From: Scenedesmus sp. ARA3
Lineage: Eukaryota > Chlorophyta > Chlorophyceae > Sphaeropleales > Scenedesmaceae
Reading direction: 5' to 3'
NCBI GenBank assembly: GCA_004335835.1
Contig: RWJK01001753.1
Coordinates: 1 to 64,000, forward strand
Length of the DNA: 64,000 bases
Every line of letters starts with the position of its first letter. The first letter of the stretch is position 1. The notes beneath the pieces were generated by a model. The model made no database searches. It saw only the letters and a list, made by a program, of their open reading frames with translations, and was not told the origin of the DNA. Below are positions 2,273 through 52,102 of the stretch, in pieces. A program made the position numbers and the translations under genes.

Positions 2273-3167
2273 ACGCAGGCCACCAGCACTACCAGAGGCA
2301 ATGGTAGTGCAAACAGCTGTGGCACTCGGACGTAGATGTTGGTGTCGCTGTGCACCTTCTGCTGTGAACATGCTAGCTGTTTGTAGCTGTCTACCCCTTG
2401 ATCAAAGGTGTTGGTGCTTTCCTGGTGTCTTTGTGCTTAAAAGCACTAGTCTCAGCAAGTGCCTTTACGCGTTCAGGATGGCAGCCACCACAGGCGTTGC
2501 CAGGCATGATGCACTCGCATGTTTGCTGTGTTGAATCACGCATGCCGCATGCAGTGCACTGGCAGTCAAGCACCTCTTGCCAGCTCAACTGTACATTAAC
2601 ACTGCCAACGCGCCTGAGCATGCACACCTGGTAGTATGCGGCTATGTGCGGAGCCTCTGAGTGTCACAGGCTGTGGCGTGGCGCGCAACTTGTGTAAGCG
2701 CACCGTCCAAGGATGTGTTGGTGCTGGGGTGGTGAGGAGCTGAAGGAGCTCTGTCTGTGGTTGTTCTGGCTGAGTCGCAGCAGCAACCCCCACTGCAGCC
2801 CCCCAAAGCGTTGCATATGCATGTCTGTATTGGTTGCAGGCCATTGGGGGCTCAGATGAGGTGTACATGGATGGGTCTGCAGACATGTGGCAGCTGTTGC
2901 TGTTGTGCTTCATCATGGGTGTGTGAGCTGTGCGCTGCTGTGACGCGCGTTCAGAAAATAGTTTTAATTCCTCCTGAAAACGTTCGACGTGTTTCCTGGC
3001 ACGTCTGAGCGCAGGAAAGCATGAGAATGCGAACCGGCGAAAATAACAAAAAAAATAACACATTTGCGTTTATGTATGCTAGATTTGTCGTTTTGCGCAT
3101 TCGCGGTGGGGTAGCCACGGCTGAGTCCGTGGATTGCTAGACGCCAGGGTCGCCCCTGGTGAAGTCA
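2273..3167. other. Gene-poor stretch between the tandem array and the tRNA
   Basis: No gene is supported here. A minus-strand ORF (2391-2627) has a cysteine-dense patch (CQCTACG, then CECIMPGNACGGC) that looks like a zinc-binding or transposase-type cluster. It has no recognisable flanking domain. A short hairpin (CCAGGG/CCCTGG) lies about 20 bp upstream of the tRNA. Confidence 0.4.
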
Positions 3168-7203: not shown

Positions 7204-8478
7204 CATGGCTGACAGCTTGGAGAATCAGCAGGCTCGGCACCTACTGATGCAGTGGCACCTGGCCAACATAGAGTTTGCAAATGCAACGCGACTGAGGCGG
7301 CTGTCGATGCGGGTGAGGGCCGGGACTGCTGCTGCTGTGTTAACAGCCAGATGCATTGCCGGGCACCTGTTTTTACTTCTGCGCACACTTCTGCACACCC
7401 CTGCACACTTGCACAATTGTTTGCACACTTACATACTTTACATACACACACGCACTCACACTCATGCAATCGTTTGCGCGCATCTACACACAATATATGT
7501 ATTGCCGCATGTCTGCTCACTGGACGCCTGGGCACACTTCTTCACACGCTCACACCTACCCAAACGCTCTAGTACGTGCTCAAGCATTCTTCACACACGC
7601 CTCCGCACATTCCTGCATGCGTACAATCACTGCCACAGCACTGGGACATGGACGGCGAGTACGAGCACGCAGGCAGCCACACGCACTCACACACTCTCCT
7701 GTTGCACTGCTGCACACGCCTCTGCAGCACTGGGACCTTGATGACGAGTACGAGCATGGGGGCAGCCACGTGTTCCTGCCGGGCGGCAACCTGCGGCTGC
7801 TGGAGGGCCTTGCTCAGGGCCTGCCCATCTTCTACAACAGCACAGCACGCCTGCTGCAGTACAGCGCCGCAGGGGTGTGTTTACATGCACGGCCTGCCGG
7901 ATGATAGACGCGTCAACTGGGCACGGTCTGCAGCTGCTTGGCGGTGTGTTCCAACAGCCACAGGACAGACATGTGGCAAAGCTGTTTGAGTGGCTTGGCA
8001 GCAGCTCTGCATGGGAATATGCAGGCGGGTTTGTTGGCGGCAGCACTTGTTCAGGCTTGTCAGACACTGTCAGCTCCTGCTGACCACAGCCCCTGCTGCT
8101 GCTGCTGCTGCTGTTTGCAAACATCACAGGTGCAGGTGCACACTGATGCTGGCGTGTTCACCGCTGATGCTGCCCTGGTGACCATCCCACTTGGTGTGCT
8201 GAAGCGGCCAGATGCCATGGTCTTCCAGCCGCAGCTGCCGCCACGCAAGCGTGCAGCTATCCGCCGGCTGGGCTTTGGCTGCCTGAACAAGGTCATGCTG
8301 CTGTTCCCGCACTGCTTCTGGGGCGACAAGGTGCGCTGCACTGCAAATTCATAATGCCCCGTTTTTTTAGCGCAGCAAGGCGGATATTGCGTGTTATTGC
8401 GAGCACCTTCCTGTACTGCTTCCTCTGCTTGGTGGCTAGCACAGTCGCCTGACAGCGTTGCTCCTGGTGCTGCAAGTG

Positions 8479-8515
<37 letters not shown>

Positions 8516-11095
8516 AAGTCCTATCACACCTGCAACTTGCTCGTTTCACTTTTGCCACGTCATGCATGCCAACATTGTGTTACTCCAGGACATGTTTGGC
8601 CACGTCAGCAGCGAGCCGCGGCAGCGTGGGCGCTACTACCTCTTCTACACCTACGACAGCATCTCTGGTGGCGCGGTGCTGGCTGCGCTGGTGGCTGGTG
8701 ACGCTGCTGTCGAGTTTGAGGCCAAACCTGAGGCTGTGGCAGTGGGGGAGGTCATGGCGCTGCTGCGCGGCATCTTTGGGCCGCAGGGGGTGGTAGTGCC
8801 TGAGCCGCTGCAGGTGCGCTGTGCAGGTGGTGGTGCTGCGTGACAAGCGTATTCCTTTGCTACCTGCCGCCAATGCACTCCGCAGGTTTGGCTCTATATG
8901 TGGTATGTATGCGGTGTATATGTGGTGTTCGTGAGCCTCAAGGCGTGGCAATGCCTGAGCCGCTGCAGGCGCACTGTGCACGTGGTAGTGCTGCGTGACA
9001 TTGTGCATGCATGACATTGTGCATGCGTGGCACGGCGTTCGTAGTATGTCCGTAGTTGCTACTTGCCGCTGGTGCAGCCTGCATGTGTGTGCGTACTGCT
9101 GCTGCATTGCTGTTGCTGCGGCTGCTCGTATCCCTGCGCCGTGTGCAGTGTTGTCACGCTCTGGTGCTGCCGCGCTGCTGTGCTGCTGTTGCATGCCGCA
9201 GGCTGTGTGCACGCGCTGGGCCTCCGACCCTATGTGCTATGGCTCCTACTCCTCAGTGGCTGTGGGCAGCAGCGGCGCTGCTGATTATGATGCACTGGCA
9301 CAGCCGCTGGGGGACAGGGTCTTCTTTGCAGGAGAGGCAACCACATCCAGGTGGGCCGCATTGTCTTGGAGTGTTTGCGCGGAGTGTTAATTCAGGTGGT
9401 CGCTGTGAGTTTGGCTTGCTTTAGGCTGGTGCTTCAAGCTCCTGCTTGCTCTGTAGGTGTGGTTGGTTTCACTCAGTGAGGCCGCCTGCATCGCAAGAGG
9501 GATGCAGGGCTGCTTGGTGCCAGCCTGGCACCAAGCATCCCTGCATCCCTGCAGGTTGCACTTCCCGGACGCCTGCTGTCCCAAGCAATTTATCACCATA
9601 CTCACCTCCAACCCGCCACCACCCCTCAACTCGCCTGGCGCACGTAATCACCACCTGCTTGCATAATCCATTGCAAGTACCCCGGCACCATGCACGGCGC
9701 GTTCGCCACAGGCCTGCGTAAGGCCGCCGCCATCGTAAGTCACTGCAGGTGGCAGCTCCTTGACCCTGCTTACCTGCCGTTCCAAGCAACGTGCGCACTG
9801 CGCCTGACCATCAGCCCTTCACTCTGGCATTGCCCGTCACCACACCATTGCGCGCGTGCTGCACATTTTGTCTTGCCGCAGGTACCCTGCCACCATGCAC
9901 GGCGCATTTGCCACCGGGCTGCGTGAGGCCGCGGCCATCATGGCTGCCTTTGCTGCGCAGCGCGGCGAGGAGCTGCGGCCTGCACTGATGACGGGCAAAG
10001 AGATGCGGGAGGCGGCGGACCCTGGCAGCGTGGCTGCGGGGCAGCAGCTGGTGCAGCTGGCTAGCCTGCTGCAGCAGGTGATTGTGTGGCACACATGTGT
10101 TGTGATCATGGTGTTCGTGCTGGCTACTAAGGGTGCTGTGGCAGAGCAAGGGAGGGGATGTGTGTTTTGTTCTGCTGTGAGCTGCATCACACATCCCTGT
10201 GGCAGGCCTGATCCGGCTGCGTGGCTGCCGGGCAGCAGCTGGTCACACTGGCTGGCCTGCTGCAGCAGGTGAGGCGGTTGCTTGCTTGCTGTTGCTGATT
10301 GCTGATGGCGAGATATCAAAACCTTTTGCAGTGTGCTGCAGCTCACTGTAGCCCAGTGGCAAGCATGCTTCCTCCCAACAGCATGCGTGCGCAGGTGACG
10401 CATATGCAGTATTGCTGAGGTTGTTGCTGTGTTGTGTGCTGCAGGTGTTTGACAGCTCTGCTGTTGACAGCCAGGGGCTGCCGGCTGGCCCTGATGAGGA
10501 GTTTGGCGTGTTTGCTGCTGCCTACGGCCCACCAGGCACCGAGTTTGAGGACCAGGCGCTGCTGGCGATCAACCTAGGTAGGTCACAAAGCATTTTAGAG
10601 CTCAGCAGTCTGCCCTGCCCCTGTCATGAGTCGATCTCTGATGCTGCTTGTGCCCCATTCCGAAGTTTGTCTGATGTAGCAGCCCCAACACACGTGTCAA
10701 TCAACTGCTTGGCGTACACTCGCTGCCGTTGCCTCTGCGGTCACTCTCAACTACCTCAAACCTCTGCACTCTCCTCCTCCTGCTGCGGCTGCTGCTTCAC
10801 TGCTGGACTGTTGCTGCTCCCACCCATCACAGCCGCGCTGCGCAGCGCCGCCAAGCACGCCCCAGTTGTCATCTACACCTCCATCAGCCGCACCCAGCTG
10901 GAGCTGCTGCGAGACGTGCCAGGTGGCGATGAGCGGCGCTTAGGCATGCTGGCTGGCGAGCTTGGTGTGAAGCTGGTGGGGCGGCCGCTGCAGGGTGACA
11001 GCCTGAGGCTGCTGGAGGCCATTGTGCAGCACAGGGGGCTGGCTGGCGCTGATGGTGATGGCGAGGATGATGCAGGCAGCAGCGACGTGGACTGA
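3805..11095 (+). CDS. FLD/LDL-type lysine-specific histone demethylase (SWIRM + amine oxidase)
   Basis: A flavin amine oxidase that removes methyl groups from histone H3 lysine, acting in the nucleus. Fourteen exons join in phase to 884 aa: 3805-4051, 4434-4513, 4852-4943, 5267-5400, 5885-5985, 6361-6543, 6809-7312, 7728-7874, 8130-8330, 8589-8813, 9202-9350, 9882-10077, 10445-10577, 10833-11095. The N-terminus is acidic then basic (TDDEDDEG, KRGPKRGR, a likely NLS). SWIRM spans about 85-170 (VRNHILARWRADVSAFL, HGHINWGVAP). The FAD fold has VVVIGAGLAG near 176 and VVEGSSRPGGR. The catalytic lysine is in FGCLNK (K550), and the closing FAD motif is FFAGEATTSRYPATMHGAF. A glutamine-rich block (about 326-411) sits where human LSD1 carries its Tower domain. 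The C-terminal piece (VIYTSISRTQLELLRDV, LGVKLVGRPL) matches the tail of Arabidopsis FLD. Several introns carry degenerate exon copies. Confidence 0.94.
5531..5573 (+). repeat. (GCT)n/(CTG)n microsatellite, intron 4 of the demethylase gene
   Basis: About 14 uninterrupted GCT units lie in the intron between the two exons that build the FAD-binding GxGxxG motif. On the sense strand it is CTG, like most intronic tracts in this window. Confidence 0.95.
7154..7201 (+). repeat. (CAG)16 polyglutamine tract in exon 7 of the demethylase gene
   Basis: A pure CAG tract encodes the longest Gln run in the protein, inside a wider Gln-rich segment (about 6948-7201). It lies directly before the conserved WHLANIEFANAT motif of LSD1 enzymes, the point where the Tower insertion joins the catalytic fold in animals. 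Confidence 0.95.
9499..9549. repeat. 51-bp near-perfect palindrome in intron 11 of the demethylase gene
   Basis: Left arm 9499-9523 (GGGATGCAGGGCTGCTTGGT then GCCAG) and right arm 9525-9549 pair at 24 of 25 positions around a single unpaired base. RNA from either strand would form a 25-bp hairpin. No target-site duplication or coding function is seen. Confidence 0.85.
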
Positions 11096-12195
11096 ATGCG
11101 GACGGTTCACGCAGCGTTCACGGAGTGTTACGAGTGTCCACTGAGTGTGAAGTAAGGCACCATGCTTGACGCCGCGGACGCAGTTTGCTACACGCTTGGG
11201 ACAGAATATGGTCTTCAGAGCTAGCTAAATTGTTGGGTACCAGCTGGCTTTGTGTGATGTGCTATTAGCATTTGTGTGATCTGCTACTAGCAAAGGTGAA
11301 TACGGGGCAGCAGGGCTGACTGAGCTGTTGGTCTTGCGCTAATGATGATGCACATGACGCTGGCAGCAGTGAGGATGAGGCTTGAGTCACTCCATGGTGG
11401 CAGTTTTGGAAAGGGGTGCCGGTGATCACGTTTGTGTATCGAAGGGTGGATTGCAATCTCCTGAGCTGACTCCTTGGTGTAGGCCAAGCTTGGCCTTGAG
11501 GTGTGCTGTTGCCTGATGGTGGAAGTGCGGGAAGGGGCCTTCATATTCACCAGCTGCTGCAAGATGCAGGCTGAGGCCTTGGCCGTGTACTGTGTGCACA
11601 TTGTGGCGCCAACATTCAGTGATCTCCCTTCTGTGGTATAGCTTGCTGCGTCATGGTTTTGCTCGCCTGTAGAGCCTACACATGGCTAACTCTACACATG
11701 CTGCTGACTGGCCATGCATCAGTGAAGTACTCCATTGCACTGCACTCCGTGGCTTCTTGATGGTGACGCTGTTTGCAGGCGCAAGCCTTGCTGAGCACTC
11801 CGCTTGGATCCACTCCATTCAGGAACTCTACACTTCTTGGCCCAGATTGTGTGGTAACAAAAATTAATGTGTGTTGATCCCACTGTGCTCGTATCCTCGT
11901 AAGAAGCTTTACATGGTGCCAGGACCCGCGTGCAACTTGCCAGGAGTCGTTACATGCACAACGGGCCAGCTCTGTGCCGCAATCTGGCACCTGACCCAAG
12001 CAGATGACGTCACATATCATGACATGTGCACCGCTGACTGCGCCAGTACAGTGGCTGTCGTGACGCGCCTACTATCAGGGAGCGACTACCTTCTGCAGAC
12101 AGGATGCACATCTATCCACTTGCGCAAGTCCACAAGCGCGCAAAGTCGCTTTGGCTAGCGGCTAGCCAGCAGCTGCACAGCGCAACTGCAGCGCG
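11096..12195. other. Convergent 3' region between demethylase and TRAPPC11 genes
   Basis: This 1.1-kb stretch should hold the 3' UTRs of two convergent genes. A TTACA (minus-strand TGTAA) lies at 11950-11954, about 245 bases past the TRAPPC11 stop, and is a candidate poly(A) signal. No TGTAA was found for the demethylase gene. No separate gene is supported. Confidence 0.4.
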
Positions 12196-15100
12196 TCAGA
12201 ACGGCATGACGTGCACGTGCGCGCTCTGCGTCACCACTTGGCTGCTGAAGCGCACCGACGACACGCGCACCGCAGGCAGCGGCAGCTGCCCAGACACGTG
12301 TGCCACCAGCGTCCATGACAGGCTGCTGCTGTCTTTGGGCATGAGCGTGACTGCCTGCTGCTTGCTGCCTGAGAACACAAAGCTGGGCGCCTCCTGTACT
12401 GACACCAGCAGCTCCTGCGGCTTGGAGGTCAGGTTGCGCAGCTGCGGTGAGCAGCAGCAGAAGCAGCAGCAGCACAGCAGCAGCAGCAGTGGCAGAGGCG
12501 GCAGGCAGGGGTTCCTCAGCAACAGGAGGATGCTGGCGGCTGCTGCAGCACGGGCAGCTGCCGGCGGCAGTTTTGGTGGCCCTCACCCAGCAGCGGGTGT
12601 CTGGACAGGTGCTTGCAGGCACAACTGCTACAGGCAACTCCAGACAACTCTGTGTGTCCAGTTCAGGTGAGCTTGTTCTGGCAGTGCGCCTACCTGTACA
12701 GTGAAGGGGAAGGCGATGCCGGCTGTGGCCCTGTGTGGTGACACCACCTTTGCACTGAGCAGGCTGTCCTGCACCAGCACCCGCGGCAGCTCCAAACTAG
12801 TGGTCACCTCATCCGGCGGTGCAGCACCAACCGCCAACTCAGCAGCAGCAGCAGCAGCAGGCCCTGCTGACACACTGCTGCTGGTGCTAGTGCTGCTGCT
12901 GGTGCTAGTGCTGCTGCTGCTTTGGGCTACTGCTGCAGGCTGCTGCCGCCTCCAGCGCAGCGTCAGCCGGCCCATGCTGACTGGGCTGCTGGTGTTGGCC
13001 ATTGGCACCAGCTGCAGCAGCAGGCAGTGCACGCTGCCCTGGGCTACTGCCAGGGGCCTGCCTGCCAGCTGGTCACTGAGCTTGTTCAGCAGCTGCAGGG
13101 TAGAAAGAAGCAGAAGCAGCAGCAGCAATGACAGCATGTCAGCAGACATTGAGAAGACACACGAGGCGGCTTGAACCCACATGACTCCACGAACAAGCAG
13201 ACATACACACAACATTGCTGTGTAGCAAGCAACGGGAGCTGTCACTGTGCCAAGTTCTGCTAGGAGTGTTTTAAACAGCAGGACAGTTAAACGTGCAGCT
13301 GCGCAGCGTGGTGAGTCACAGCTACCATGCAGGTAGTGCGCACACAACCACCACGCAGCAGCTGCTGCAACCGCCAGCCGTATTACTCACCTGCAAGCCT
13401 GCCTCCTGCTGCAACTCCAGCTGCGCATCCAGCAGCTGCAGCTCCACAGCATGCAGCGCCCGCACCAGCACCTGCGCAAACACAACCTGACCAACCTCCA
13501 GCGGCACGCCCTCCGCTGCCCCTGCTGCTGCTGAAGCGTCCTCTGAACCCTGACTCTGCGCAGCAGCTGCTGTTGCTAACGCGCCTGCGTCGCTGTTGGC
13601 AGCTGCATACGCGTGTGAGGCTGCGACCAGAGTATGCACCCCCACCTCCCCATGCAGGCGTGTTACATGGTCAAACGGCTCACTGAACCACAGCTCTGCG
13701 CTTTGACTGACGACAGCTGGGCAGCTGAGTACTGCCATAAGCCTGCAGGAGTTAGCCACCAGGGATCGGACCCACAGGTGCTGCGTGAAGCTGCTTCCTG
13801 CAGCTATGGCTGGCAGTTCTAGGGTTTCTCCTTCAGGGTTTATTGCATGCAGCTTGCCATTACGTGAGGCTGCAAGCAGGGTGGCATCACCTGGAGTGGC
13901 GCCCATGGCTGTGCGCAGTGACAGCTGCAGCGTTGCCGGCAGCTGCGGTGAGGATGCTGACACTGTTACTTGCAGCGGCGCAAACTCGTTGACTAGCAGC
14001 AGCTCCGGCCGCAGCACCTGTAAGGTGACAGAGACGCAGAGAGTGCAGCGCATGAGTTAGTCAGCTGATGTTGACAGCGCTGCAAGGTTGGGCAGGTGGC
14101 TGCGCAAGGCAGGCAGCAGCACACTGCGGCACTGTTCATGCAGGGTGCTAGCAGCCATATCTGCTCGCGTACCAGTTTTGCTGCAGCATCAGCAGGCCAA
14201 TGGTGGCGGCAGGACGCGCACACGGCCTGCTGCTGCTCAGGCGGTAGTGATGCACCAACGTCCTGCTCACCAACACCATGCACAGGAGCTGCAGCTCGCA
14301 TCAGCCGGCTAACCAACAAATGTAACAAATGTAACAAATGTAACAGTCATCATTAATCCGAAATCTCACCTGCAGCTGCGGCAGGCGCCCCACGTGCTGC
14401 ACCTTCCCCAGCCACGCCCCCAGCCGCACGCCCTGCCGCACTTTGAAAGGCTCGCCACCTGGCAGGCTGCTGCTGCCCAAAGCAGGCCTGCCAGGTGGAA
14501 ATGAGCCTAGCACGAAGCTGACTGTGCAGTGCTCACTCAGCTGCAGCTGCAGCTGCTCGGCCGCCACAGCACCCACGCAGCGCGGCGGGAAGCGCACATG
14601 CAGCAGCTGCCAGCTGCCTGGCTGCAGCATCAGCGGCCAGCTGCCTGCTGCTGCTGCATCCTGCGTGCCAGTAAGCTGCAAGATCTGCAGGGCATCAGCA
14701 GCCTCTGCTGCTGCTGCTTGCACACCTTGCTGACCGCTAGCAGCCGCATGCTGCTGCTGCTGCTGCTGCTGCTGCTGTATATCGGGCCCTGGGCCTACTG
14801 CTAATGGCACCGTCCAGCTGCCTTGGCTATCTGTGAGAGTGAGTGACGCCCCATCCAGTGGCAGCGCCACAGGCAGGTGGCAGTTCAGCGCTACACACAG
14901 CTGCAGCTGCGCAGGGTCTGGCGCATGTGCAGTGAAGCCGCCGGCTACTGTGAGGATGCGCCACCAGCCAAAATCCTGCTGGTTGAACCTGCAGCATGCA
15001 TTCAGGGACAGCACGATAGTTATCAAATGCAAGGTAAGTGCAAGCAGCGCTTGCAAGGAAAGCACTAGACTAATGCTGGACAGGTGATGGTGTGCCATGC

Positions 15101-16155
15101 AGGTGCATTGCGTTATAAATGCAGCTGGAAGCCAGCTGCTTCTTGAGAAGCATGCGTGGCCTTAGGGCACCTGCCAGACATACACACATTTGAGAAAACA
15201 GTACACCACACCCACTCACCGCAGCAGCAAGTCAGTGATTGCACTGGCCTGCGCAGCTTGCTCCTTAGCCGGCACCTGCTGCAGCGCTGCCGGCAGGTCA
15301 AGCTGCTGCACCACGTAGTTCCAAGCAGTGCTGCTGCTGCTGCTGCTGCCCAAGGGGCTGCTCGGGCTGCCTGCAGCCGCAATCGGGCTGCTGCTGCCGC
15401 CTAGCTGCTGCTGCTGCTGCTGCTGGCCTGGCGGCTGACCATCCAGCAGCCGAGGGCTGCTGCTGGGGCTGCTGCTGCTGCCAGCTGCCTTCATGATGCT
15501 GCTGCGCTTATCAAGCGGGCCTTTCAGCACCGCCGCAAGTGCTGCAGCCGCCATCTCAACGGCCTGCTTGTGATCTATAAGGCCATCAGCAGCAGCAGCA
15601 GGAATACTTGAGCTGTTGCTGCTGCTGTGGCTGCTGCTGGGTGCTGCCAAGCTGTCAGCAACGCAGGAGAGCTCCAGCGAGTGCAGCAAGGCTTCCCGGT
15701 GCAGCTTGAGGCGCTGGCACACATCGCGCAGCAGCAGCAGCGAGTGCGACAGCAGCGTGCTCCAGCCGTCCCTGCAGGAAGAGATGAAACGGCGGCACAC
15801 ATGAGAATGTCAGCAGCAGCAGCAGCAGAAGCAGCAGCAACATCCTATGTGGGTTTCCGGCAAGACTATGCTTCGCAAAAGACGCGCCGGGGTCATGTGT
15901 TCAGCAGGCATGAGATGCAGCTGGTGCGTCGCTAGACCAGATCGCATGCGCGGAGCCTAGTACCATACATGCACAGCTGCTTGCTGCATGCTATGCACAG
16001 TGCCGCAGACAAACCCAACTCACGTCCTGTACGTGTGCACCGCTTGCATCAGCAGCTTGCGCGCAGCGGTCAGGTTGTGTGTGTCCACCTGCTGCTCAGC
16101 AATCTGCCAGGCCAGCCGCGCCTGCAGCCTGTCTGCTGCTGCATGAGACGTCTTG

Positions 16156-16191
<36 letters not shown>

Positions 16192-16705
16192 GGCTGCCCA
16201 GGTGCTGCTGCCACAGGCTTGCTGGCTTGCCGCAGGTGTGCTGCCTGTGCTTGCAGCAGCAGATCCAGCACCAGCTGGCTGTGGTTCACACGCCGCTCCT
16301 CGGCCTCTAAAAAGAGGCAGAACTCGGCATCAGTCATGTCACTGTGGGGTGTGGGCGGCGGGCCGACAGACGGTAGGCGACGAGTGAGATGGTGACAGGT
16401 GTCTAGTGGGCAGGGGTGGCAGAAAGATAGGCTGCAGGATGCACATGACACGGGTGCTGCCACAGTACATGATGGACTGCAAACTGGGCTGCCCGGATCA
16501 CCACGTGTTTTGACGCGCAACAGACGAAAGTCAGCATAACATCCAACTCTGTTCAGTGCGCCTACATGCCGACCACAGCACCAGATGCTTCCAGCTACCC
16601 CTGACAAGCATGACACATGCAGCCGCTGCACACCCCGTGGTACATGCTCTCTGCTTCACCATGCACTGCCCCGCGCCACACGCTTGCCACAATCGCACCT
16701 GCTGC

Positions 16706-16738
<33 letters not shown>

Positions 16739-19700
16739 GCCGCCGCATCTCCAGCTGGCCCAGGTAGCGCCCCTTGCGCACAGCAGACGCATCAAACGGC
16801 GTGGGCCCGCCACCCCTGGCTGCTGCCAGCTGCTCTGCTGCTGCCTTGCGGCTGATGGCGAGCTGCGCTGCACACATCAGCAGGTGGCAGGGGCGCGCGT
16901 CCTTGTGGGTCTGCAGCAGCAAACATAGCAGCAGCAGGATCAGCAGAAGGTGAACAGCGGCAGGCTGAGCAGGAGTTGTCACTTATTGATGACAAAGGGA
17001 GAGGCAGAGTCGCAGCCGCACAGATATACCGCACAGATCTACCGCATCATGCAGGGAGGAGCCGGGCCAGCGCAGCAGCTGCAGCTGCCAAGAGCCGTCA
17101 GGACACAGCAGATCAATATGGATGATGTAGATGTGCAGCTAGCCGAGTGTGAGCACACCGCCCCACCTGCAGCACTGCCTCATCCATCCTGGATGTTGCC
17201 ACCATCTCAGCAGCAACCTGGTACTGCCGCGACAGCCAGCCGTAGTGCGCGGCTGCAGCAGCCAGTGGCAGGCCCTCTGCGGCAGTATACGAGCGCACAG
17301 CAGCAGCCAGCATGAAGTAATGTAGAAGGATTTGGCAATATATACTGCCATCGCTTGCCTGGCCATCCTCAGGCACATGCTTATTGTTGATCCTTCTTTG
17401 GAAGCATGGGGCAACCTTTTCTGTCCTGCTGGCACTTGCTGGCATCCTCCTAGCACCTTTACCAGACACATCCAGCTGTCTGCTGACGTGCCATGCCATT
17501 GTTCTGCCTGAGTCTGAGACGCAGTGCGTTGCTGTGCAGCCGCATCATGCCAGAGCCTCACCCGGCAGGGGCCCAAACGCCGCCAGGTGCCCCCGCAGCT
17601 GCTGCAGCGCCTCTGCAAAACGCTGCTGGTGCAGCAGCAGCATCATGGCCTTGAAATGTGCCACCTCAGCCACAGCAGCAACCTCAGCATGCCGCTGGCA
17701 GCTCACGGTGGGCTTGCCCAGTGGTACACCTTGCAGTGCTGCTGCTGCTGCCTGGTAGGCGCTGACTGCTGCCAGCCAGTCCTGGCGGAACTCCGCCAGC
17801 ACAGCAAGCTGCATGCAGGAGCAGGCGGCAGCAGCATGGGCGGCAGCACTTACGATAGGCATGCATGGAGGCTGAATTGGGTGTTGGAAGCATGGCATGT
17901 GATCAAACGGCCAGCATGGGGTCGGAAGTGATGCCGATCAACGCCCTGCTTCAACTGATTCAGCATAGTAGCCTAGGTTCAGCGATTCTTGCAACCTCAG
18001 GAACCAGCTGCATACCATAGACTTCACATCGACCACATACAAAGTGCAGCTGTACGTCCACGTCAGTTGCTCCTGCTGCTGCTCCCTTGCTGCAAGGTCA
18101 CCGCCAGCTGCGCAGTGCTGCCGCCACCTACAGGCTCCACCCCCGCACCTTGAATGCAGTGGCTGCATTGACCTCAGGCGGTGAGCTGCCCAGCGCAGCA
18201 GTGATGTCCAGCTGCTTCTGCCGCAGCCGTGCAGCAGAGCTGCTGTAGTATGCTGCTGCCGCCTCTGTCACAAGCTGCCCCAGGGGACCCAGCTGCGCAT
18301 CCTGCAGCTGCTTGCGCGCCTCTGGGGACAGCGCCGGGTCACAGCACTGCCTGCTGATCACGCACAGCTGCCTGCAGTGCATGACAGGAGCAGGGATTTG
18401 GCGACAAGTGCTTGCGTGTTGATCTCACACCTGTTGCGAGAGGCAGCGGCGACGTGGGTGCTTTGGAGGGTGAGTGCAGTGCTGCTTCAAACGATGGCTG
18501 CCACTCCATGACACCAAGTAGGACACGTGCGTCAGCGCACACGCGTTGTACCAGTTGCTTGGTGACAGGCATATTTCTCAGACACAATTTCCATCAACAG
18601 CAGGGCCCAGCAGCAGCAGCAGTAGTAGCAGCAGCAGCAGCCGCACCTGTGCTCCAGCCCCAGGTTGCTGCGCAGCCCCGCCAGCCTGTCGGGAGGCAGC
18701 TCGCTCAGCTGCCCCTCCTGCACCACCACCAGCAGCAGCGCGGCGCCCTTCACGCTGGCCGCTGCACGCACAGCGCGCAGGCCAGCCAGCATGTGCATCC
18801 AAGAGCTGGGATCGCCATCCACGTGAGACCTGACAACAGCAGCAGCAGCAGCAACCGGGTGTGTTACACAAAACACAGGCCATGTGACAGCGCCTTGCTG
18901 GGGGCTGCTGCCAGAGCTGTGTGCAGCTGCCATCTAGTGGCCTATGGCCAGTTGCAGCGCGAAGGGTGCAGCACATTGATGTGGCTTGCGATGCAAGACG
19001 CCATCACTGGTGCATGGAAAACAGCACCTGCAAGACGCACGGCCTGTCCCCGTTGCAGCTGCTGCTGCTGCTGTTGCGATGTAACACCATCGCTGTCCAA
19101 GCTGCTCAGCTTACCTTGGCACAAATGCCACAGCCACTGCCGCCCGGCGTTGCCGCTGCTTTGCAAACCAGTCCGCCTGCATGTGCGGCAGACAGTGACA
19201 CACAGCGTCACAAGCATTGTGCTGTGCAGCGCAAACAGTCGAGAGCTACGACGTCAACAGCAGCTGCTTTTGTGACTGCAGCAAGCACCAGGCCTGCATG
19301 AATGCACCGTTGCGACATGTGGATGGTGTGGTTGAGGCGCTGCAGGATGTGTATGCTGCAGTGTGACGAGACAAGCTTTCCTGCAAGCAGCTGCTGCTGT
19401 GCTGCTTGCCTTGAGGATGCCATCTGGCGTGCTGAAGGGCTTCGGCTGCCGCTTCACTCCTGCAGGAGAGCATGGAAGCAATGAGCAGTGGCAGATAGAC
19501 ATGCACAACAGCAGGTAGACATGCAAACCTACACCAGCTGCTGCTCATTGCCTCAACTACACAGGTCAAGAGGACAGCCTACATGCAAGTGGCAGCGCAC
19601 AGCACAGCAGCTGCTACGCCCGAAGTAACTACTGCACGTGCCATGTCAGCAATGGCAGCAGCACAGCTAGGCCTTCAAGACGCTGTCAAAAGTGTTCTGC

Positions 19701-19900
19701 ATGGTTGGCCACGCTTACTGCCACTCACCAAACAAGCGCACCAGCAGCGACTCAGTGGCCTCTGCTAGGCCAACAGAAAAGAAGGGTGGCCGTATGGTGT
19801 GGTTGAAGTATGAGCCCACATCCTTGTGCAGCTCAGGGCAACCAATAAAAGCAATTACTGGTAGCGGCGGCGTGCGAAGCTCATTGGGCAAGGCGTTCAT
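12196..19900 (-). CDS. TRAPPC11 homologue (foie gras/gryphon family), TRAPP III vesicle-tethering subunit
   Basis: A subunit of the TRAPP complex that acts in ER-Golgi trafficking and autophagy. Exons 1-7 join in phase: 19900-19729, 19459-19410, 19176-19115, 18829-18647, 18371-18149, 17808-17562, 17276-17167. The start (MNALPNELRTPPLPVIAFIG, then CPELHKDV) matches plant TRAPPC11. The next marks are DGILKADWFAKQR and the foie-gras signature FKLAVLAEFRQDWLAAVSAY. Later exons carry THKDARPCHLL (from 16910), TDAEFCLFLEAEERRV (about 16345-16020), and TYRTDGWSTLL with KLHREALLHSLELS (to about 15250). A beta-rich C-terminal half follows (NQQDFGWWRILTVAGGF near 14990), then the last exon (about 12450-12196, ending in SAHVHVMPF). 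Exon borders from 16.9 kb down to 12.2 kb are approximate. Intron 2 uses a GC donor. Confidence 0.9.
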
Positions 19901-20498
19901 GCTGATGCTGATGCTGGTACTGCTGGTTTATCAGGTACTGCAGCTCCTGCAGGCCTGTCAGGCAGCAGATCAGTAATATTATGTCATGATTTCACGGTAT
20001 TATCAAGGAAAAGACGTAACATGGGAGCCTTGCATTGTGGATCAAACAGCAGCAGCAAGTACTGCTGCTGGTTCTCAGGCACAGCACCAACACGGACAAA
20101 CTCTCACAAACACGCAGTCTTACAATACAGCCATGAACCCTCTGATCCTGACTTTAAAGGAAACCATTTCCGAACAAAACACATGTTGTGTTGACACTGA
20201 CAGGTCACTCCATACCCAACACGTGTGACCTGATGGTGCAAACATAGATATGGTTACTGCTCAGATGGGGGACCAACTTACTGATCAACGTGTAGCTTGC
20301 AGAGCTTGCCGGGCGACTTATCACGTTCACACACGCAGAGCAGGAGCTTCACTGTTCGAAGGCTGACTGTAGATCGACTCGTGACTATTTTTCAGACATC
20401 AAACATTTTCTTGAAGCTCATGCTGACACATCGCCCGGTCTGGTGGTGTTGGTGACGTTTGGCGGGGCCATTTCCACCAACTTTCGTCACAGGGCACG
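19901..20498. other. Divergent promoter region, TRAPPC11 / proline dehydrogenase
   Basis: About 600 bp separate the two start codons, so both promoters and 5' UTRs must lie here. No TATA box or other motif was recognised with confidence. Confidence 0.5.
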
Positions 20499-20960
20499 AT
20501 GAGCGTGCTGCAGGCACTGCAACCCCTGCTTCCTTACTCAGTAGCAGTTTTGCCGCAGCTGAGACAAGCTGTGCTTGCAGCGAGCTATGGAGCTAGAAGC
20601 CAGGTGAGCTGTCTGTACAGCCTGTGCCACGCAAGGCCATGTGATCACCAGCACTTTCCGACACAGGTGCTTATGCACCATCATCGTCCCAAAGGATGCC
20701 ACAACCATTGCTTTGTGGCCGTATTGCTGGTTCTTGCTGGTAGCAGGCCATGGACAGCCTGAAGATGCTTCAGCAGTAGCTGCTTCTGCTACTGCATGGA
20801 AGCCTGTGCATGGCTCCAACACTCAGCCTGGCATCTGCTTGCGTGTGTATCTGCCAATTGTACTATGCGTGCAGGGGCTGGAGGCTCAACTGGTCAGCAA
20901 GCATGCACGGCATCTTGCCACGAGCACAAGGCCTGCAGCTGCTCCTTCAACCAGCCAGGC

Positions 20961-20996
<36 letters not shown>

Positions 20997-23900
20997 CACA
21001 GCGCAGTCTGCACCTCAGCTAGACTTCAATGACTACCAGTAAGTATCCTACTCTCAGATCAGCACTTCTGCTCTTGCTCTGTGCGCATGCCCCGCTGTGT
21101 GGGCATGTCGACGTCCGGCTGCCACCTGAGTCATCGTGACTCACCCAGGCTGGTTGTGCTTGTCGCAAAGGATGGCAGCAGGAAGCAGCACCTCAGCCAT
21201 CAGGAGCAGAGCCCGCCCTGATTGGCATGTGTCTATCACAGGTCAATCTTCAACATGCGGTCAACAGGAGAGCTGCTGCGCATGTATGTGGTGCTCAAGG
21301 TGCGCGGGCGTGCATGGAGTGTCAGAGCCCGATGCGTGAAGCAGCAGCTGCACAGGCGCACGTGCAAAGCATGCACTACAGCGCCATCTCTCTGGTCTGG
21401 CAAAGCGTGACTATCTTCTTCTTGGTCCTGCAAAGAGCCCCACTGCAGACAAGCCAGCAGTCCCAGCACACCACCTAAGCAGTGGCCGTGCAGCAGGTTA
21501 GGTAAGCCATGCAGCTGCAGCAGCAGACCCGCATGTGGAACTGCTGCCTACTCAAGTGTGCTGTTTGCGCTGGCCCTGCTGCATCACCCTGGCATGCTGT
21601 CCTGCAGGCCTGCTCCATCACGCCGCTGGTCAAGAACGCTGAGGCGCTGGTGCGCGCCTCACGGCGCGTGCTGGGCGATGGCTTCACCTTTGGCCTGATG
21701 CGGCACACCTTCATGAAGCAGTTCTGCGCAGGTTGGCAGGGGGAGGGTCTAGGGAAAACACTTGGGTACAAATGTCAGCCCGTCCCTAACTACAGAACAT
21801 CAGTACAAATACACATGGTGAATGAAGGGTGCGCTCTGTACCTGGCTGTGCTACCACATGTTGCACAGCTGCAGAGGTACACAGCGGCTAGACCCTGAAT
21901 CCCCATAAGATGAGCTCACCTTGTCTGCAGCGCATGACAGCCTATGCTGGTGGCCAGACATTGAGCAGAAACTGTGTAGCAGCTGGCACAGGGTGGTTGA
22001 TTGCGGCAGTTTGCATAGCATTGCGTTGATCCACGGTTGCCAGCAGAAGTGTCTTGAAGTGTGCTCAAATCAGACTATGGTGTCTAGGGAACATGCCCGT
22101 GTATTGATGCCTTTTTACTGCTGCTGCTGCTGCTGCCAGGCGAGAAGGAGGAGGATCTGTGGCCCACTATTAACCTGCTGCGAGCAAACGGCATTGGGAC
22201 GATCATAGACTACGCTGCAGAGTGAGCTTCATTGGCATGCAGGCACCTGGGCCTCTGCGTCCTGCTCATGCCGTTGCAGATGCTGCTTGTGTCTGGACAG
22301 TCCTGTCCATCCTTGTGGCAGACTAGCACACCAGCTGGCTGTGTTCGTCAGACGTTGCCAACAACACATGCATTCATAGTCTGAACCGAGGCGCTGCTTG
22401 TGTGGCTGCTTGCGGCTGCTTGTAGGGATGATGTGGAAGCAGCAGCAAAGCCAGACAGCAAGAGCTCACCACCAGACCAGCAGCCAACAACAGCAGCAGC
22501 CACCACTGACGGCAGCGGCAGCACACATGCAGACGCAGCTGCTGCCGGCGGTGCTGCTGCTGCTGTGCTTGGTGCCACGCAGCTGCCAGGGGCTGTTGCA
22601 GTCAGCAGGACATACTCATATGAAGATGAGGCCACGTGTGACAAGCACGTGGGCATCTTCCTGCAAGCCATTGCAACGGGCGCAAAGCTGCCTGGTCAGG
22701 GCTTTGCGGCAATCAAGGTGGGTTGTGTGCTTGGCTATGTTGAGATTAATTGGGTTTGTGTACGTGCGCAAATGTGTGTTGATGCTGTGAGCACTGAGTG
22801 TTACTGCAACCATGCCACGTCCTCAGCAAACTTGACGCGTCTGTTGTTGATAGTGATGTGCAGCAACGGACTGCAGCGCTGCTGTGTGCATGCTTAGGTT
22901 GGTGCTGCTATCTATCGACTGTTTATGGGCCCCCAGCTAACACCACGATGAAGTGACAGACTGTGCCCCCGCAGGTGACTGCGCTGGGGAAATTTATGCT
23001 GCTGAAGCGCATGTCACCATCTCGGGGTTTATGACAGCTATTTAGCATGTATAATATGTACACAAACAGCCCGCCACCTCATGCTGCCCCCGCAGGTCAC
23101 TGCACTGGGCAACCCCATGCTGCTGGAGCGCATGTCAGCAGCGCTGCTGGAGATTCGCAGCCTCTTCAGGGAGGCAGACCGCGATGGTGAGCAGCAGTGG
23201 GGGCACAGGCAGGTGCTCCTGCAGGCGCAACCATGCATCACTGATACACGGCTTGCAGCAGCTTGCTTATGTAGACAGCAGAGTTGGTGTGCAGGCGGCC
23301 AACTGATGGGGTGCTCGGCACCGGCGCATGGATTGAAGCCATTAGCACTGTTGATGGCAACTGAACCTGTCGCTCTACTGCAACGCTGCAGATGTCCGCA
23401 GGCTTCACTCCCAGCTGTTGTGTCAGCGCTTTGTACAGGCTTTGCTCACATATCTTGCGCAGCTGCTTGTAACTTGTGCGGCGTTGCTGCTGCTGCAGGC
23501 GATGGCTTTGTGGATCGTGCCGAGTTTGAGGCGCTGTACCGGCAGCTGTTCCCTGCCGCCTCCCAGGAGGCCATCGGCCGCGCCTTTGCTGCCCTGGACC
23601 TGGAGGGGGCCGGCAGGGTGGACATCATCAGCTGGTGAGGGGGCCTAGGAGGAGGATCATTGTGTGGCGCTGCTGTTGGACGTGCTGACTGTTTGAATGT
23701 GTTTCTCTGGCAGCGAGGCTTCGTTGTGCCAGTCAGGAGCTATTGCACACGTGACCACATCAGCACCTGGGGATGTTGAGTCCCACAGCAACAGATGCTA
23801 CCTGCCACATTCAGTGTGGTGACAGCCAAGCCAAACCCTGCACAGGCCGTGTGCTGCTGTCACTGGCTCCCATTCAGCAATGCTCTACAGTACACATGTG

Positions 23901-26387
23901 TGGTTTATACAGCTTCCAAGCCGTGACAGTAGGACTGCCGCTGAAATGCACATGCAGGAGCCACCGCATCCATCTGGCTGACATGCCTGGCATGGTGGCG
24001 CGCATTAAGAAGCAAGGTGAGGGGCCAGCACAGCATGCGCTACGAGTGGCTGCACATATGTAGCGCAACCAGCACAGTTAAAAACACGCATAGTCAGGCC
24101 TTGGATCATTTCAACATGCTGCTGCGCAGGATTTGTCTGTTGTGCAAGCCTTTGACAGACCTTCACATGGAGCAAGATGCGCAGTTCTCACACCCCTGCT
24201 CCATGCTGCTGATGATGACCATGCTGTGCCTCTCGCAGCCCCATATGTTGTTAAAACTGAAGTACTCACTCCCCTGCTCCTGCTGCCTCTCTCGCTGTTG
24301 TTGCAGGCACACGCACGCGCCTATCAGACTCTCTGGTTGCTGCCGCGTTGACCCAGGAGGAGGTGGCGCTGGCGCAGGCGCTGCTGGGGCGCGTGGCCAA
24401 GCTGGCTGCTGCTGCCGTGGGCACCAACGTGAAGCTCATGATCGATGCAGAGCACACCTACTTCCAGCCTGTGAGTAGGAGCGATGCAGCAAGAAAATGA
24501 GACCGTTGCGTACAGTGGGTACGCACAGTGCATACATTTATTGATCCTGCGTATGCGGGACTTCTACTTTGTTGATGACTGATCAGCACAAGGGCACAGC
24601 TGGCGGCACCGCTCTGCAGCAGGACAGCTCAAAGCAGCTCACAGCCTTGCCATCAACAGCTGCTGCTGCTGCTGCTGCCGCCGCTGCTGCCGCCGCTGCA
24701 GGCCATTGACCACACCACGCACGTGCTGAGCCTGAGCTACAACCGGGCCTCCCCCATCATCTTCAACACCTACCAGGCCTACCTCAAGGGCAGCTATGAG
24801 CGCATGGCAGAGGACATGGAGCGAGCACGGCGTGAGGGCTACGTGTTTGCTGCCAAGCTGGTGAGCGCTGCCTGTTTGCTGTGGTCACCTGGTATGTTGC
24901 TGCGCTGGTGTGCATATGCATAGGCCTTCAAGCAGACCCACTGTGGCATAGGCTGCATTGAGCAAAGACGGACGGCAGCTGCCGATGAGGCATCACTGGA
25001 TGGGTGCAAGGTGATGCTGCAGCACTCATGCCTTGTGTGGTATGGGCCACGTGATCTGCTGCTCACTGACAACACCAGCAGCTGAGCTTCTGTTGGGGTG
25101 CCATCATGCACGTCAGGTGTTCAGCAGGTGTGTTGCGCTACTCTCAACTCTACTTGCATTGTGGGTCTATCAAGTGCTGAGCACTGTGTGCTGCGTGTTG
25201 CCTTGCAGGTGCGCGGCGCATATGTGCAGGTGAGACAACGGCAGTACTGCAGGGTCGTGTCATGCATGCAGCGACTGCCATGCAGGGACAGCGGCTGTAG
25301 TGTATCCCTCTGTACCACAGTCGCAGCGTGGCATGTAGGTGCTGCTGATGCCATCCTGCCTTGTCACTGTGCTGGTGTGAGCCATGCCAGCCCGTTGATT
25401 TCAGCATGAAAATTTGTCTTGCGCTTGTGCTGCCGCCGCTGCTGCTGTTTGGCTGTGCAGCTGGAGCGCAAGCGTGCTGCTGCCATGGGCTACGAGTCGC
25501 CTATCTGGGACACCATCGAGGACACGCACAGCAACTACAACAAGTGCCTGGAGGCTGTGCTGGACCAGGTGGGGCACAGCAGGATAGGGTTTGATGTAGC
25601 CTGCAGGCAGCCTTGTGTAGCTGGTGTATCGGTGTTGGTGATGGTTGAGGAGCTGCAGAGTAAGAGGACAGGCACAGCCTGGCTTGATCCTGTTGATCAC
25701 GGTCCAACTGCATGCGGTTGTTTTTGCTGGCAAGGGGTGAGAAAATAGCTGGCAGCAAGGCGGGATTCAATAGCAGCCGGCTGTGCTGAGGGTGCCCGGC
25801 TGCTGTGCTCTGGCATGAGATGTCCTGGCCTGATCACACTGTGCACATGCCTGGTGATGGCTGCAGGTGGCAGAGCACAAGGCAGAGGTGATGGTGGCAT
25901 CCCACAACCAGGCATCCATCGAGCGCACTGTCTCAGGTCAGACCAGGCAATCAGCGCAGCTGCCGCATCTGCAGTTGTGCTTGTAAGCACAGCACCATCA
26001 GCACGCCGTGCATGTCAACTTGTGGTTGTGTTCTGTTTGTGGATCTGCACTCCTTCCATCATGCATTGTGTCTCCTCTGCTGCCTCTGCTGTACCTGCAG
26101 GCATGGCTGCACGAGGGCTGAGCCCCTCGGGGGGTGGCGTGTACTTTGGCCAGCTGCTGGGCATGGCAGACAACCTCAGCTTCACTCTGGGCCAGCACGG
26201 CTACGAGGCATTCAAATACGTGCCATACGGGTGAGCGCGCATGACAGACAGACAGCCTGCCTCGGCCAGCAGCTGCAGCAGCGACAGCTTGACTGTGTGC
26301 CAGGTGCTGTGCTAGGATGCAGTGCAGCTGTGCTTTGCTGACGGGAGCCTTACACCTCCTGCGTCTGGCGCACTCACACTGGTCCTG

Positions 26388-26426
<39 letters not shown>

Positions 26427-26863
26427 CTTATGTCAACATACGTCCCCTGCCCCAACATACGTCCCCTGCCCCAAGCATACACTCCTGCCTCTTGCCCATC
26501 AACATACATGCCTGCCCCTTGCCTTGTCTGCTACCGCTCGCCTGCCTCATGAGTGCATCCCGATCGAGCTGGTGATGCCGTACCACATGCGCCGCATGCC
26601 TGTGTCAGATCCTGCTTCATTTTTTCCTGTGTTAACATGCGTGCATGACCCGTGCTGCCTCTGTCGCCCCTCGCCTGCCTCATGCGCGCAGCCCTATTGA
26701 GCTGGTGATGCCGTACCTGATGCGCCGCGCGCACGAGAACAGTGCCATGACCAAGGGCCCCGGCATTGGCAAGGAGCTGGCCATGCTGCGCACAGAGCTG
26801 TGGCGGCGGCTGAGTCACCCCGGCAGCAGCAGCCGCGGCGCCAAGATGCACGCAGCTGCATGA
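20499..26863 (+). CDS. Mitochondrial proline dehydrogenase with EF-hand insert
   Basis: FAD enzyme that oxidises proline to pyrroline-5-carboxylate at the inner mitochondrial membrane. Sixteen exons join in phase to 644 aa: 20499-20603, 20875-21038, 21242-21299, 21608-21731, 22140-22221, 22426-22717, 23096-23186, 23499-23634, 23958-24016, 24307-24470, 24702-24860, 25209-25229, 25461-25568, 25867-25936, 26101-26230, 26692-26863. The N-terminus lacks acidic residues for 35 aa, as in targeting peptides. The alpha/beta barrel shows LMIDAEHTYFQP, IIFNTYQAYLKG, KLVRGAYVQ, MVASHNQASIE, VYFGQLLGMAD and the substrate-binding YLMRRAHENS (596-605). Residues 303-314 (DRDGDGFVDRAE) form a canonical EF-hand loop, and 339-350 (DLEGAGRVDIIS) a degenerate partner. 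Plant ProDH1 has no such insert as far as I recall. Introns contain decayed exon copies. Confidence 0.95.
26391..26427 (+). repeat. (CCTG)9 tetranucleotide microsatellite in intron 15 of PRODH
   Basis: An uninterrupted run of about nine CCTG units lies in the intron before the last exon. It is the only long tetranucleotide run noticed among the many triplet tracts. Confidence 0.95.
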
Positions 26864-27884
26864 GCCCCATGCATGCAGCTGCGGTCTGGCTGCTGGGGCT
26901 GTGGTGCTAACTGTGCACAGGTAGTGCTTGTCTGCGGGGGCCAAAGTGTGTTCTTACTTTTGTGATCAGGCATGCGCCGCGCGCACGAGAACAGCGTGAT
27001 GACCAAGGGCTCCGGCATTGGCAAGGCAAAGAGGTGGCCATGCTGCGAACAGAGCTGTGACGACGGCTGTCGAACTTTGGTGCAAGCAGCCGCGGCGCCA
27101 AAGTGCACGCAGCTGCTTGAACGGCAGGCTGTGGCAATGGTGTGGCTGCCGAGGCTGTGGTGCAACCTTTGTACGATGTTTCTTAGGGCCTGTGTGTGCC
27201 ATGTACATTTGTGATCAAGCATGTGTGTATGCATAAGGAGCAGCTGTGGGCTTCGACAGGGACATTGCGTCCGGACATATGTTACATAAGCATTGACTTT
27301 GTTAGCTTAGCAGTGGCTGCAGACGCCCTGTGTGATCCTTCTTCTGATATACTAATATCAGCATCTAATGTTGAGCCAACAAGCTTGGCATTAATAATAA
27401 ATGCTGCATGTGACGCGAGCCTGACAGATTTGGCAGATTTGGAGGCTTGGGTGCTGAGCATGTGAGTGATCAGCCACGCTTGTGCATGATCGTGGCGTGC
27501 ATCATGAGCTGAGAGGACAGGCACAGGTCTTTCATACACGGCACTGCACTGCATGGCATGCATACACCAGAGGTGCTTAGCATGCAATAGTCCTCGTTGC
27601 ATTGTTGAGCAAGGATACATTACTGTTACTGGTTCACACCCCGTGGCACCACCTGCAGCCTGAACTGCTGCCAAACTGCTGCAGAACCAGCTAACGCAGC
27701 GAGCACACCACACCATAGCGAGCTGCAGGAAGCACACTATGCGAAGCACTATGCGAAGCATAGTGCAACACAATGCAGCATATGTTGACAGCATGCGCTG
27801 CTTGTAAGCAGCTGCTTCACTGCTGCAAGCACAAGCCATGAAAGCAGATCTGCCACGCTCGGCTCACTCCAACACTCCCTTCAA
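26864..27884. other. Convergent 3' region of PRODH and the PAP2 gene, with a decayed PRODH exon copy
   Basis: Bases 26970-27170 are a degenerate copy of the last PRODH exon and its 3' flank. The copy begins CATGCGCCGCGCGCACGAGA and carries indels and an early stop. A perfect stem-loop (GCACTATGC, loop GAA, GCATAGTGC) lies at 27746-27766. A TTACA at 27282-27286 is the only minus-strand poly(A) candidate for the PAP2 gene, which would make its 3' UTR about 600 bases. Confidence 0.55.
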
Positions 27885-52081: not shown

Positions 52082-52102
52082 NNNNNNNNNNNNNNNNNNN
52101 NN
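52082..52102. other. Assembly gap (21 Ns)
   Basis: A run of 21 N is followed by nine G, which suggests a gap closed with an unresolved homopolymer. Sequence and distances around it should be treated as uncertain. Confidence 0.98.

What the first reader, a model, noticed from the sequence alone, without database searches (positions are those of the whole stretch)
7636..27170. Recurrent decayed copies of exon edges beside their true exons
At least seven short tandem copies of exon/intron borders were found in two unrelated genes. In LSD1 the copy/true pairs are 7636/7725, 8951/8796, 9677/9882 and 10209/10018. In PRODH they are 22966/23087, 26537/26671 and 26970/26719. The offset is usually 90-250 bp and copies occur on either side of the true exon. 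In most copies the splice site is mutated or the frame is broken. This suggests frequent local segmental duplication across splice sites followed by decay, a possible route for splice-site migration, intron growth or cassette exons.
Basis: seen in the sequence. Interest (0 to 1): 0.82.

Follow-up and report, generated by a model that had tools for sequence, protein, structure and literature searches.

The report
Echo copies of exon edges
In this green alga, short copies of the ends of exons, each with its own splice signal, sit inside the neighbouring introns far more often than chance would give, which points to a frequent and little-described way in which introns grow.

Summary
All 7 copy/true pairs are recovered blind; apart from one array and one 23-bp repeat they are the only local repeats of 50 bits or more in the window. 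In 317 kb sampled from the same genome, 63 of 646 predicted exon edges have a copy in the adjacent intron (window: 6 of 150), against 0 of 1,938 with unrelated introns and 0 of 646 with the reverse complement. There were 151 direct and 0 inverted pairs, and none in Markov controls.

Copies hold 30-60 bp of exon in 47 of 63 cases, lie on the intron side of donors and acceptors alike, and form arrays of up to 7 units. Many carry a real polypyrimidine tract or donor consensus on intron sequence unrelated to that beside the true exon, which simple tandem duplication plus neutral decay does not explain.

Best reading: real short duplications across splice sites, tolerated because splicing still finds the site joined to the exon body, often templated by a diverged homologue (inferred). 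Plain duplication with gene conversion, functional decoy sites and, for some young copies, assembly mosaicism remain open. Host: Tetradesmus obliquus or very close.

The parts
7636..7680 (+). copy of the acceptor edge of the LSD1-like exon that starts at 7728 (true block 7725-7769)
   Evidence: 84% over 45 bp, offset 89; AG intact
7725..7769 (+). true acceptor edge, LSD1-like exon 7728-7874
   Evidence: HMM exon; peptide present in P0241 and P0242
8777..8845 (+). true donor edge, LSD1-like exon ending about 8812 plus about 32 bp of intron
   Evidence: peptide present in P0241
8932..9000 (+). copy of the donor edge 8777-8845; GT changed to GC
   Evidence: 86% over 69 bp, offset 155; motif
9673..9734 (+). 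copy of the acceptor edge of the exon starting 9882; AG changed to AA; followed by GTAAGT, a single case
   Evidence: 85% over 62 bp, offset 205
9878..9939 (+). true acceptor edge, LSD1-like exon from 9882
   Evidence: P0241
10024..10081 (+). true donor edge of the same exon (donor GT at 10078 by eye; the HMM placed it 6 bp later)
   Evidence: P0241 joins ...SLLQQ to VFDSS
10215..10272 (+). copy of the donor edge 10024-10081; GT intact
   Evidence: 88% over 58 bp, offset 191
22964..23019 (+). copy of the acceptor edge of the PRODH exon 23096-23186; AG intact, residues changed (NP>KF, E>K, A>P)
   Evidence: 84% over 56 bp, offset 121
23085..23140 (+). true acceptor edge, PRODH exon from 23096
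   Evidence: exon chain; P0001
26501..26595 (+). copy of the acceptor edge of the last PRODH exon (58 bp intron + 37 bp exon); AG changed to AT
   Evidence: 79% over 95 bp, offset 133
26634..26728 (+). true acceptor edge, last PRODH exon 26692-26863
26720..26918 (+). true 3' part of the last PRODH exon plus 3' UTR
26972..27174 (+). degenerate copy of 26720-26918 downstream of the gene (frame broken by an insertion; TGA where the true exon has TGG)
   Evidence: 78% over 204 columns, offset 252

Best explanation
Exon-edge echoes: a short stretch spanning a splice site (about 45 bp of exon plus the splice signal) is duplicated within the same gene, so that a second copy lies roughly 90-250 bp into the adjacent intron. 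Shown: the copies are in this assembly, tied to exon edges, direct, on the intron side, at donors and acceptors alike, sometimes in arrays, and absent from the protein models of three genes. Inferred: they arise in break repair or unequal recombination that starts in the exon. They are tolerated because the site still joined to the exon body makes the correct mRNA, whereas duplications inside exons are removed. The repair template was often a diverged homologue (other haplotype or hybrid partner), so the exon edge and its working splice signal are recognisable but the intron beyond is not. Copies then decay, and arrays expand by unequal exchange between the direct repeats.
For: 63 of 646 exon edges have a copy in the adjacent intron; 0 of 1,938 against unrelated introns and 0 of 646 against the reverse complement. 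60-bp probes: exon edge 58 of 551, exon interior 1 of 176, reversed intron 0 of 551. 151 direct and 0 inverted pairs; 106 of 151 have edge geometry, against 33.9 (sd 5.4, max 50) in 100 annotation rotations. Arrays: 13 of 14 examined have 3-7 units, 12 of 14 with spacings of 84-137 bp. Copy acceptors have pyrimidine fraction 0.66 (n=28) against 0.61 at true acceptors and 0.475 at random intronic CAG (p=2.5e-13); 0.65 in the 20 whose flank I judged non-homologous. Copy donors: 18 of 29 GTGNG. Spacer-flank homology falls with exon-part identity: 7 of 13, 4 of 14, 2 of 8. Copies are more synonymous than dead copies of the true edge would be: 97 synonymous to 136 nonsynonymous codons, 1 stop, against about 66 to 176 and 5.6 stops simulated. 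T. obliquus is reported as diploid with extensive heterozygosity (PMC12636532, passage).
Against: No second haplotype or parent sequence was found for the four loci tested, so the diverged template is not seen directly. Proteins of other T. obliquus assemblies (and P0001, unnamed) are 99-100% identical over the searched regions, so allelic introns might well be alignable, which weakens the diverged-haplotype step. In 8 of 13 arrays spacers and copies have diverged about equally (within 0.06), as plain tandem duplication predicts. Synonymous excess varies among sites (p=8.6e-5), so one history does not fit all. Intron identity past the splice signal is still 0.42 at +8 to +30 in the youngest class, above the 0.26 of random pairs, so some intron homology is common.
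Confidence: 0.42

Rival explanations
1. Plain intrachromosomal tandem duplication of an exon-edge-plus-intron unit, kept similar in the exon part by gene conversion from the true edge or by the faster loss of intron homology.
For: 8 of 13 arrays have spacers clearly more alike than one shuffled control (by 0.1 or more); 13 of 35 tested pairs with offset under 200 bp still show spacer-flank homology, most in the youngest class; the window pairs 8777/8932 and 26501/26634 extend 32 and 58 bp into the intron.
Against: 6 of 13 pairs with at least 93% exon identity show no spacer homology at p<=0.01. Intron-only duplications should be at least as common: intron-interior probes hit 46 of 1,359, 37 of these in introns that already hold an edge copy, and intron-start probes 12 of 479. 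An old, converted copy should have lost its polypyrimidine tract, which is intact.
Confidence: 0.3
2. The copies are functional alternative or decoy splice sites, kept by selection (for example unproductive splicing that tunes expression).
For: 47 of 58 GT or AG intact, splice-signal scores equal to true sites, few stops (1 in 53 sites), synonymous excess.
Against: Splice dinucleotides are lost with divergence, roughly as neutral decay would give: 19/20, 15/20, 13/18 intact by identity class (no formal test). No inner splice site. Window copies change conserved residues. Arrays differ widely in copy number.
Confidence: 0.12
3. Assembly artefact: two diverged haplotypes were stitched into a mosaic, leaving each haplotype's version of an exon edge side by side.
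Against: At residues changed in the LSD1 and PRODH copies, proteins of the same or nearly the same species (P0241, P0242, P0001) carry the true residue 29 times and the copy residue 0 times; all homologues checked: true 73, copy 2, other 14. Purely nonsynonymous copies occur in the same gene as the synonymous ones (0 to 4, 0 to 5). Arrays of up to 7 regular units. The window has only one N run, 21 bases at 52082.
Confidence: 0.12

Closest known systems
[quoted passage not shown] potato RdRp case, PMC4974935; Drosophila near-intron pairs, PMC2891723)
   Same: A local direct duplication spanning exon and intron sequence carries splice signals with it; [quoted passage not shown]
   Different: Those cases create a new intron and are single or few. 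Here the existing intron lengthens, the copy is skipped in the protein models seen, and about 1 in 10 edges is affected.
Tandem duplicated and mutually exclusive exons (recalled)
   Same: Direct copies of coding sequence lie next to the original exon.
   Different: Here one edge is copied, the other end has no splice site above chance, and many copies are degenerate.
Introners and transposon-made introns (recalled)
   Same: Many events in one genome, tied to splice sites.
   Different: The sequence is taken from the adjacent exon, not a shared element; exons show 0 of 1,938 matches in unrelated introns.
Intron sliding (discussed in PMC2891723, passages)
   Same: Duplicated splice sites at short distance could let a border move (inference).
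   Different: No moved border was shown here.

Membership tests
Tandem genomic duplication across a splice site | Direct orientation and short distance | tested here: met
   151 direct, 0 inverted pairs within 600 bp
Tandem genomic duplication across a splice site | Whole unit (offset length) duplicated, including the intron part | tested here: inconclusive
   Spacers alike in 8 of 13 arrays; 13 of 35 pairs with offset under 200 bp show spacer homology
[quoted passage not shown]
   Protein models of three genes join the true edges at 14 copy-bearing edges; other genes not checked
Mutually exclusive or cassette exon duplication | Copy bounded by two splice sites | tested here: not met
   Inner-end splice scores no better than random intron positions (58 sites); single exceptions are possible
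Introner or mobile element | Related sequence at many unlinked sites | tested here: not met
   Four queries, each holding a copy, found only their own locus in the 87 Mb assembly; the tool skips very common words
Functional alternative splice site | Use in RNA | not testable with these tools
   No RNA reads are held; the protein models seen skip the copies

The most novel reading that the evidence does not exclude
A process that copies splice-site regions specifically, coupled to splicing or transcription or kept because the copies act as decoy splice sites, plants working duplicates of exon edges throughout the introns of this alga and drives intron growth.
Probability: 0.2. Interest if true: 0.9.

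Novelty: new variant of a known kind. Interest (0 to 1): 0.72.

Why it matters
The papers seen here argue tandem duplication across splice sites from one or a few cases. This genome appears to hold about 115-295 per Mb (bootstrap interval), from nearly identical to badly decayed, so birth, splicing tolerance and decay can be followed statistically. It offers a concrete route for intron lengthening and a large natural test of how a spliceosome picks one of two near-identical edges. It also warns gene predictors: the self-trained HMM called some copies as exons.

Tried and rejected
Chance or low complexity: rejected.

Mobile element or distant paralogue as source: no other locus found for four queries.

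Cassette exons: inner ends carry no complementary splice site above chance. The GTAAGT after copy 9673-9734 is a single case.

Insertion flanked by target-site duplication: I saw no shared motif at the inner boundary (by eye), and the new junction would need a ready-made splice signal exactly at the repeat end. Not pursued.

Donor offsets in multiples of 3 (15 of 29; acceptors 9 of 29): looked suggestive, no prediction behind it, left aside.

Identity falls with distance from the splice site (0.89 in the first 10 bp to 0.71 at 60-70 bp): confounded by the length of older alignments, not used.

A first self-training of codon usage drifted to wrong frames and was replaced.

Literature: in the listings (10-20 titles and abstract starts each) I saw no paper on this pattern in Scenedesmaceae; most subscription journals are not held.

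Dropped rows: 5 of 63 hits (match ended more than 10 bp from the edge), 95 of 646 edges (too masked), 5 gapped sites of 58, 23 of 58 in the spacer test (offset 200 bp or more, short spacer or short flank).

Full report
CHECK OF THE OBSERVATION. A blind self-comparison of the repeat-masked window lists 24 direct pairs within 1.5 kb. The only other rows of 50 bits or more are 4 rows of one array (1684-2286) and 2 rows of a 23-bp repeat (41959-42143); the remaining 11 rows score 30-34 bits. Six pairs copy a splice edge; the seventh copies the end of the last PRODH exon with its 3' UTR. In the true codon frame, mismatches in the six splice-edge pairs plus the first 55 bp of the seventh fall 10, 9 and 26 on codon positions 1, 2 and 3.

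HOST. The LSD1-like protein matches P0241 (Tetradesmus obliquus) at 100% over the region searched, and a saccharopine-dehydrogenase-like gene on the same contig matches P0121 (T. obliquus) at 100% over the whole query. The assembly is 87.27 Mb in 1,567 contigs. By size and contig number it is neither the UTEX 393 assembly (107.7 Mb, 1,368 scaffolds; PMC5255914 passages) nor the DOE0152z assembly (208 Mb, 2,705 contigs; PMC5552973 whole text). T. obliquus is reported as diploid with extensive heterozygosity (passage in PMC12636532 citing Biondi et al. 2024, which I did not see).

GENOME-WIDE TEST. I fetched 270 kb more: the rest of the window's contig to 164 kb, and the first 10 kb of 17 other contigs; with the window 334 kb, of which 317,151 bases are not N. 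This is not a random sample. A codon-usage HMM was trained on the sequence itself with PRODH as seed. It gives 8 of 11 hand-built PRODH exons exactly and all 10 donors, which is not an independent test; LSD1-like and saccharopine-dehydrogenase-like exons agree with protein models, apart from a few donors placed some bases off and some copies called as small exons. Local direct pairs (45 bits or more, within 600 bp): 151; inverted: 0. 106 of the 151 have one block across a predicted exon edge with its partner on the intron side, against 33.9 (sd 5.4, maximum 50) when the annotation is rotated 100 times. Of 646 edges (exon at least 60 bp, intron at least 80 bp), 63 have a match to their exon in the adjacent intron; controls gave 0 of 1,938 (unrelated introns) and 0 of 646 (reverse complement). 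In 58 of the 63 the match ends within 10 bp of the edge; the other 5 were dropped from later counts. In the window itself 6 of 150 edges have a copy. With 60-bp probes: exon edge 58 of 551 (95 edges dropped as too masked), exon interior 1 of 176, reversed intron 0 of 551, first 60 bp of intron 12 of 479. Intron-interior probes hit 46 of 1,359; 37 of these hits, and 18 of the 24 introns concerned, belong to introns that already hold an edge copy. Bootstrap over 34 blocks: 5.8-14.4% of edges, 115-295 per Mb; 21 of 34 blocks hold at least one, so the copies are clustered. Scaled to 87 Mb this would be of the order of 10,000-25,000 (inference from a non-random sample).

ANATOMY. The exon part is 30-60 bp in 47 of 63 (range 23-145). 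Donors (34) and acceptors (29) on both strands are affected alike. Offsets are 87-150 bp in 31 of 58, 200-260 bp in 14, between these in 6 and longer in 7; at least 4 of the 200-260 bp cases hold a decayed middle copy. Of 14 arrays examined, 13 have 3 or more units and 12 have spacings of 84-137 bp; the largest has 7 units (L020 7135-7945). Examples outside the window: an SNF2-like exon with 5 acceptor edges (L018 6083-6577) and a WD40-like exon with a 98% copy (L024); these gene names are my reading of motifs, from no call. The inner end of copies carries no complementary splice site above chance.

WHAT DOES NOT FIT SIMPLE DUPLICATION AND DECAY. (a) In pairs with at least 93% exon identity, intron identity at +8 to +30 past the splice site is 0.42, against 0.26 for random pairs of true sites; that class includes arrays. 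6 of 13 such pairs with offset under 200 bp show no homology between spacer and distal flank at p<=0.01. (b) Both sides nevertheless look like real splice sites. Copy acceptors have pyrimidine fraction 0.66 (n=28 of 29), true acceptors 0.61 (n=324), random intronic CAG 0.475 (n=13,945). Copy donors keep GT in 22 of 29 and GTGNG in 18 of 29; true donors are GTGNG in 237 of 322, random intronic GT in 2,132 of 18,882. (c) Changes are more synonymous than a dead copy plus a constrained original predicts: 97 synonymous to 136 nonsynonymous codons in 53 ungapped of 58 sites with 1 stop, against 66 to 176 and 5.6 stops in 60 simulations. A wider set of 77 sites, some in repeat arrays or possible coding repeats, gives 168 to 219 with 3 stops and significant heterogeneity among the 47 sites with at least 4 changed codons. 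On the other side, splice dinucleotides are lost with divergence roughly as in neutral decay (19/20, 15/20, 13/18), and in 8 of 13 arrays copies and spacers have diverged about equally.

READING. A duplication whose template is a diverged homologue explains (a)-(c) together: the exon edge is alignable, its splice signal was real, and the intron beyond it differs. It also explains why intron-only duplications are hardly seen: they would not be recognisable. Duplications inside exons would be selected out. This template was not seen, and same-species proteins are nearly identical, so the step is inference. Plain tandem duplication with conversion is almost as likely and clearly applies to some arrays. 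An assembly mosaic is unlikely for the window pairs: at residues changed in the LSD1 and PRODH copies, P0241, P0242 (T. obliquus) and P0001 (unnamed, 99%) carry the true residue 29 times and the copy residue 0 times; over all 13 homologues checked the counts are true 73, copy 2, other 14. It cannot be excluded for some young, almost purely synonymous copies (107348, 107900).

USE IN mRNA. The proteins P0001, P0241 and P0121 join the true edges at 14 copy-bearing splice edges (2 PRODH, 4 LSD1-like, 8 saccharopine-dehydrogenase-like) and I found none of the copies in them. Whether those strains carry the copies, and whether the models rest on RNA, is unknown; P0001 comes from a 2.6 kb contig that looks like an mRNA.

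COMPARISON. The closest known process is tandem genomic duplication carrying splice signals, argued from single cases such as potato (PMC4974935) and a handful in Drosophila (PMC2891723) (passages read). The present pattern works like it but, in the genes checked, does not create introns; it is tied to exon edges, and it is pervasive in the sample. I therefore call it a new variant of a known kind.

Noticed in passing
window 1684-2286: Array of long repeats (offsets of 180-465 bp, one pair 98% identical over 184 bp) in sequence the HMM calls intron; no exon edge found in it.
   Followed up: no
window 41959-42143: 23-bp repeat, about 8 copies, touching a predicted exon end.
   Followed up: no
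C1347:84000-93000 and 102000-110000 (L007, L025, L026): Copies are concentrated: blocks 80-110 kb hold 21 of the contig's 32 copy-bearing edges. The genes look like GH9 endoglucanase (name recalled from sequence) and saccharopine dehydrogenase.
   Followed up: partly
window 26501-26728 and 26720-27174: The copies upstream and downstream of the last PRODH exon together match nearly the whole exon, meeting at a shared 9-bp word ATGCGCCGC.
   Followed up: no
C1347:107231-107615: In this 118-bp exon part all 9 differences lie in the inner 84 bp, while the 34 bp next to the splice site and the first 9 intron bases are identical (read); weak hint of gene conversion.
   Followed up: no
G000 sample, all loci: Strong codon bias (GAG 745 to GAA 30, CAG 770 to CAA 14 in training codons), with long glutamine runs in the LSD1-like protein that differ in length between T. 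obliquus proteins.
   Followed up: no
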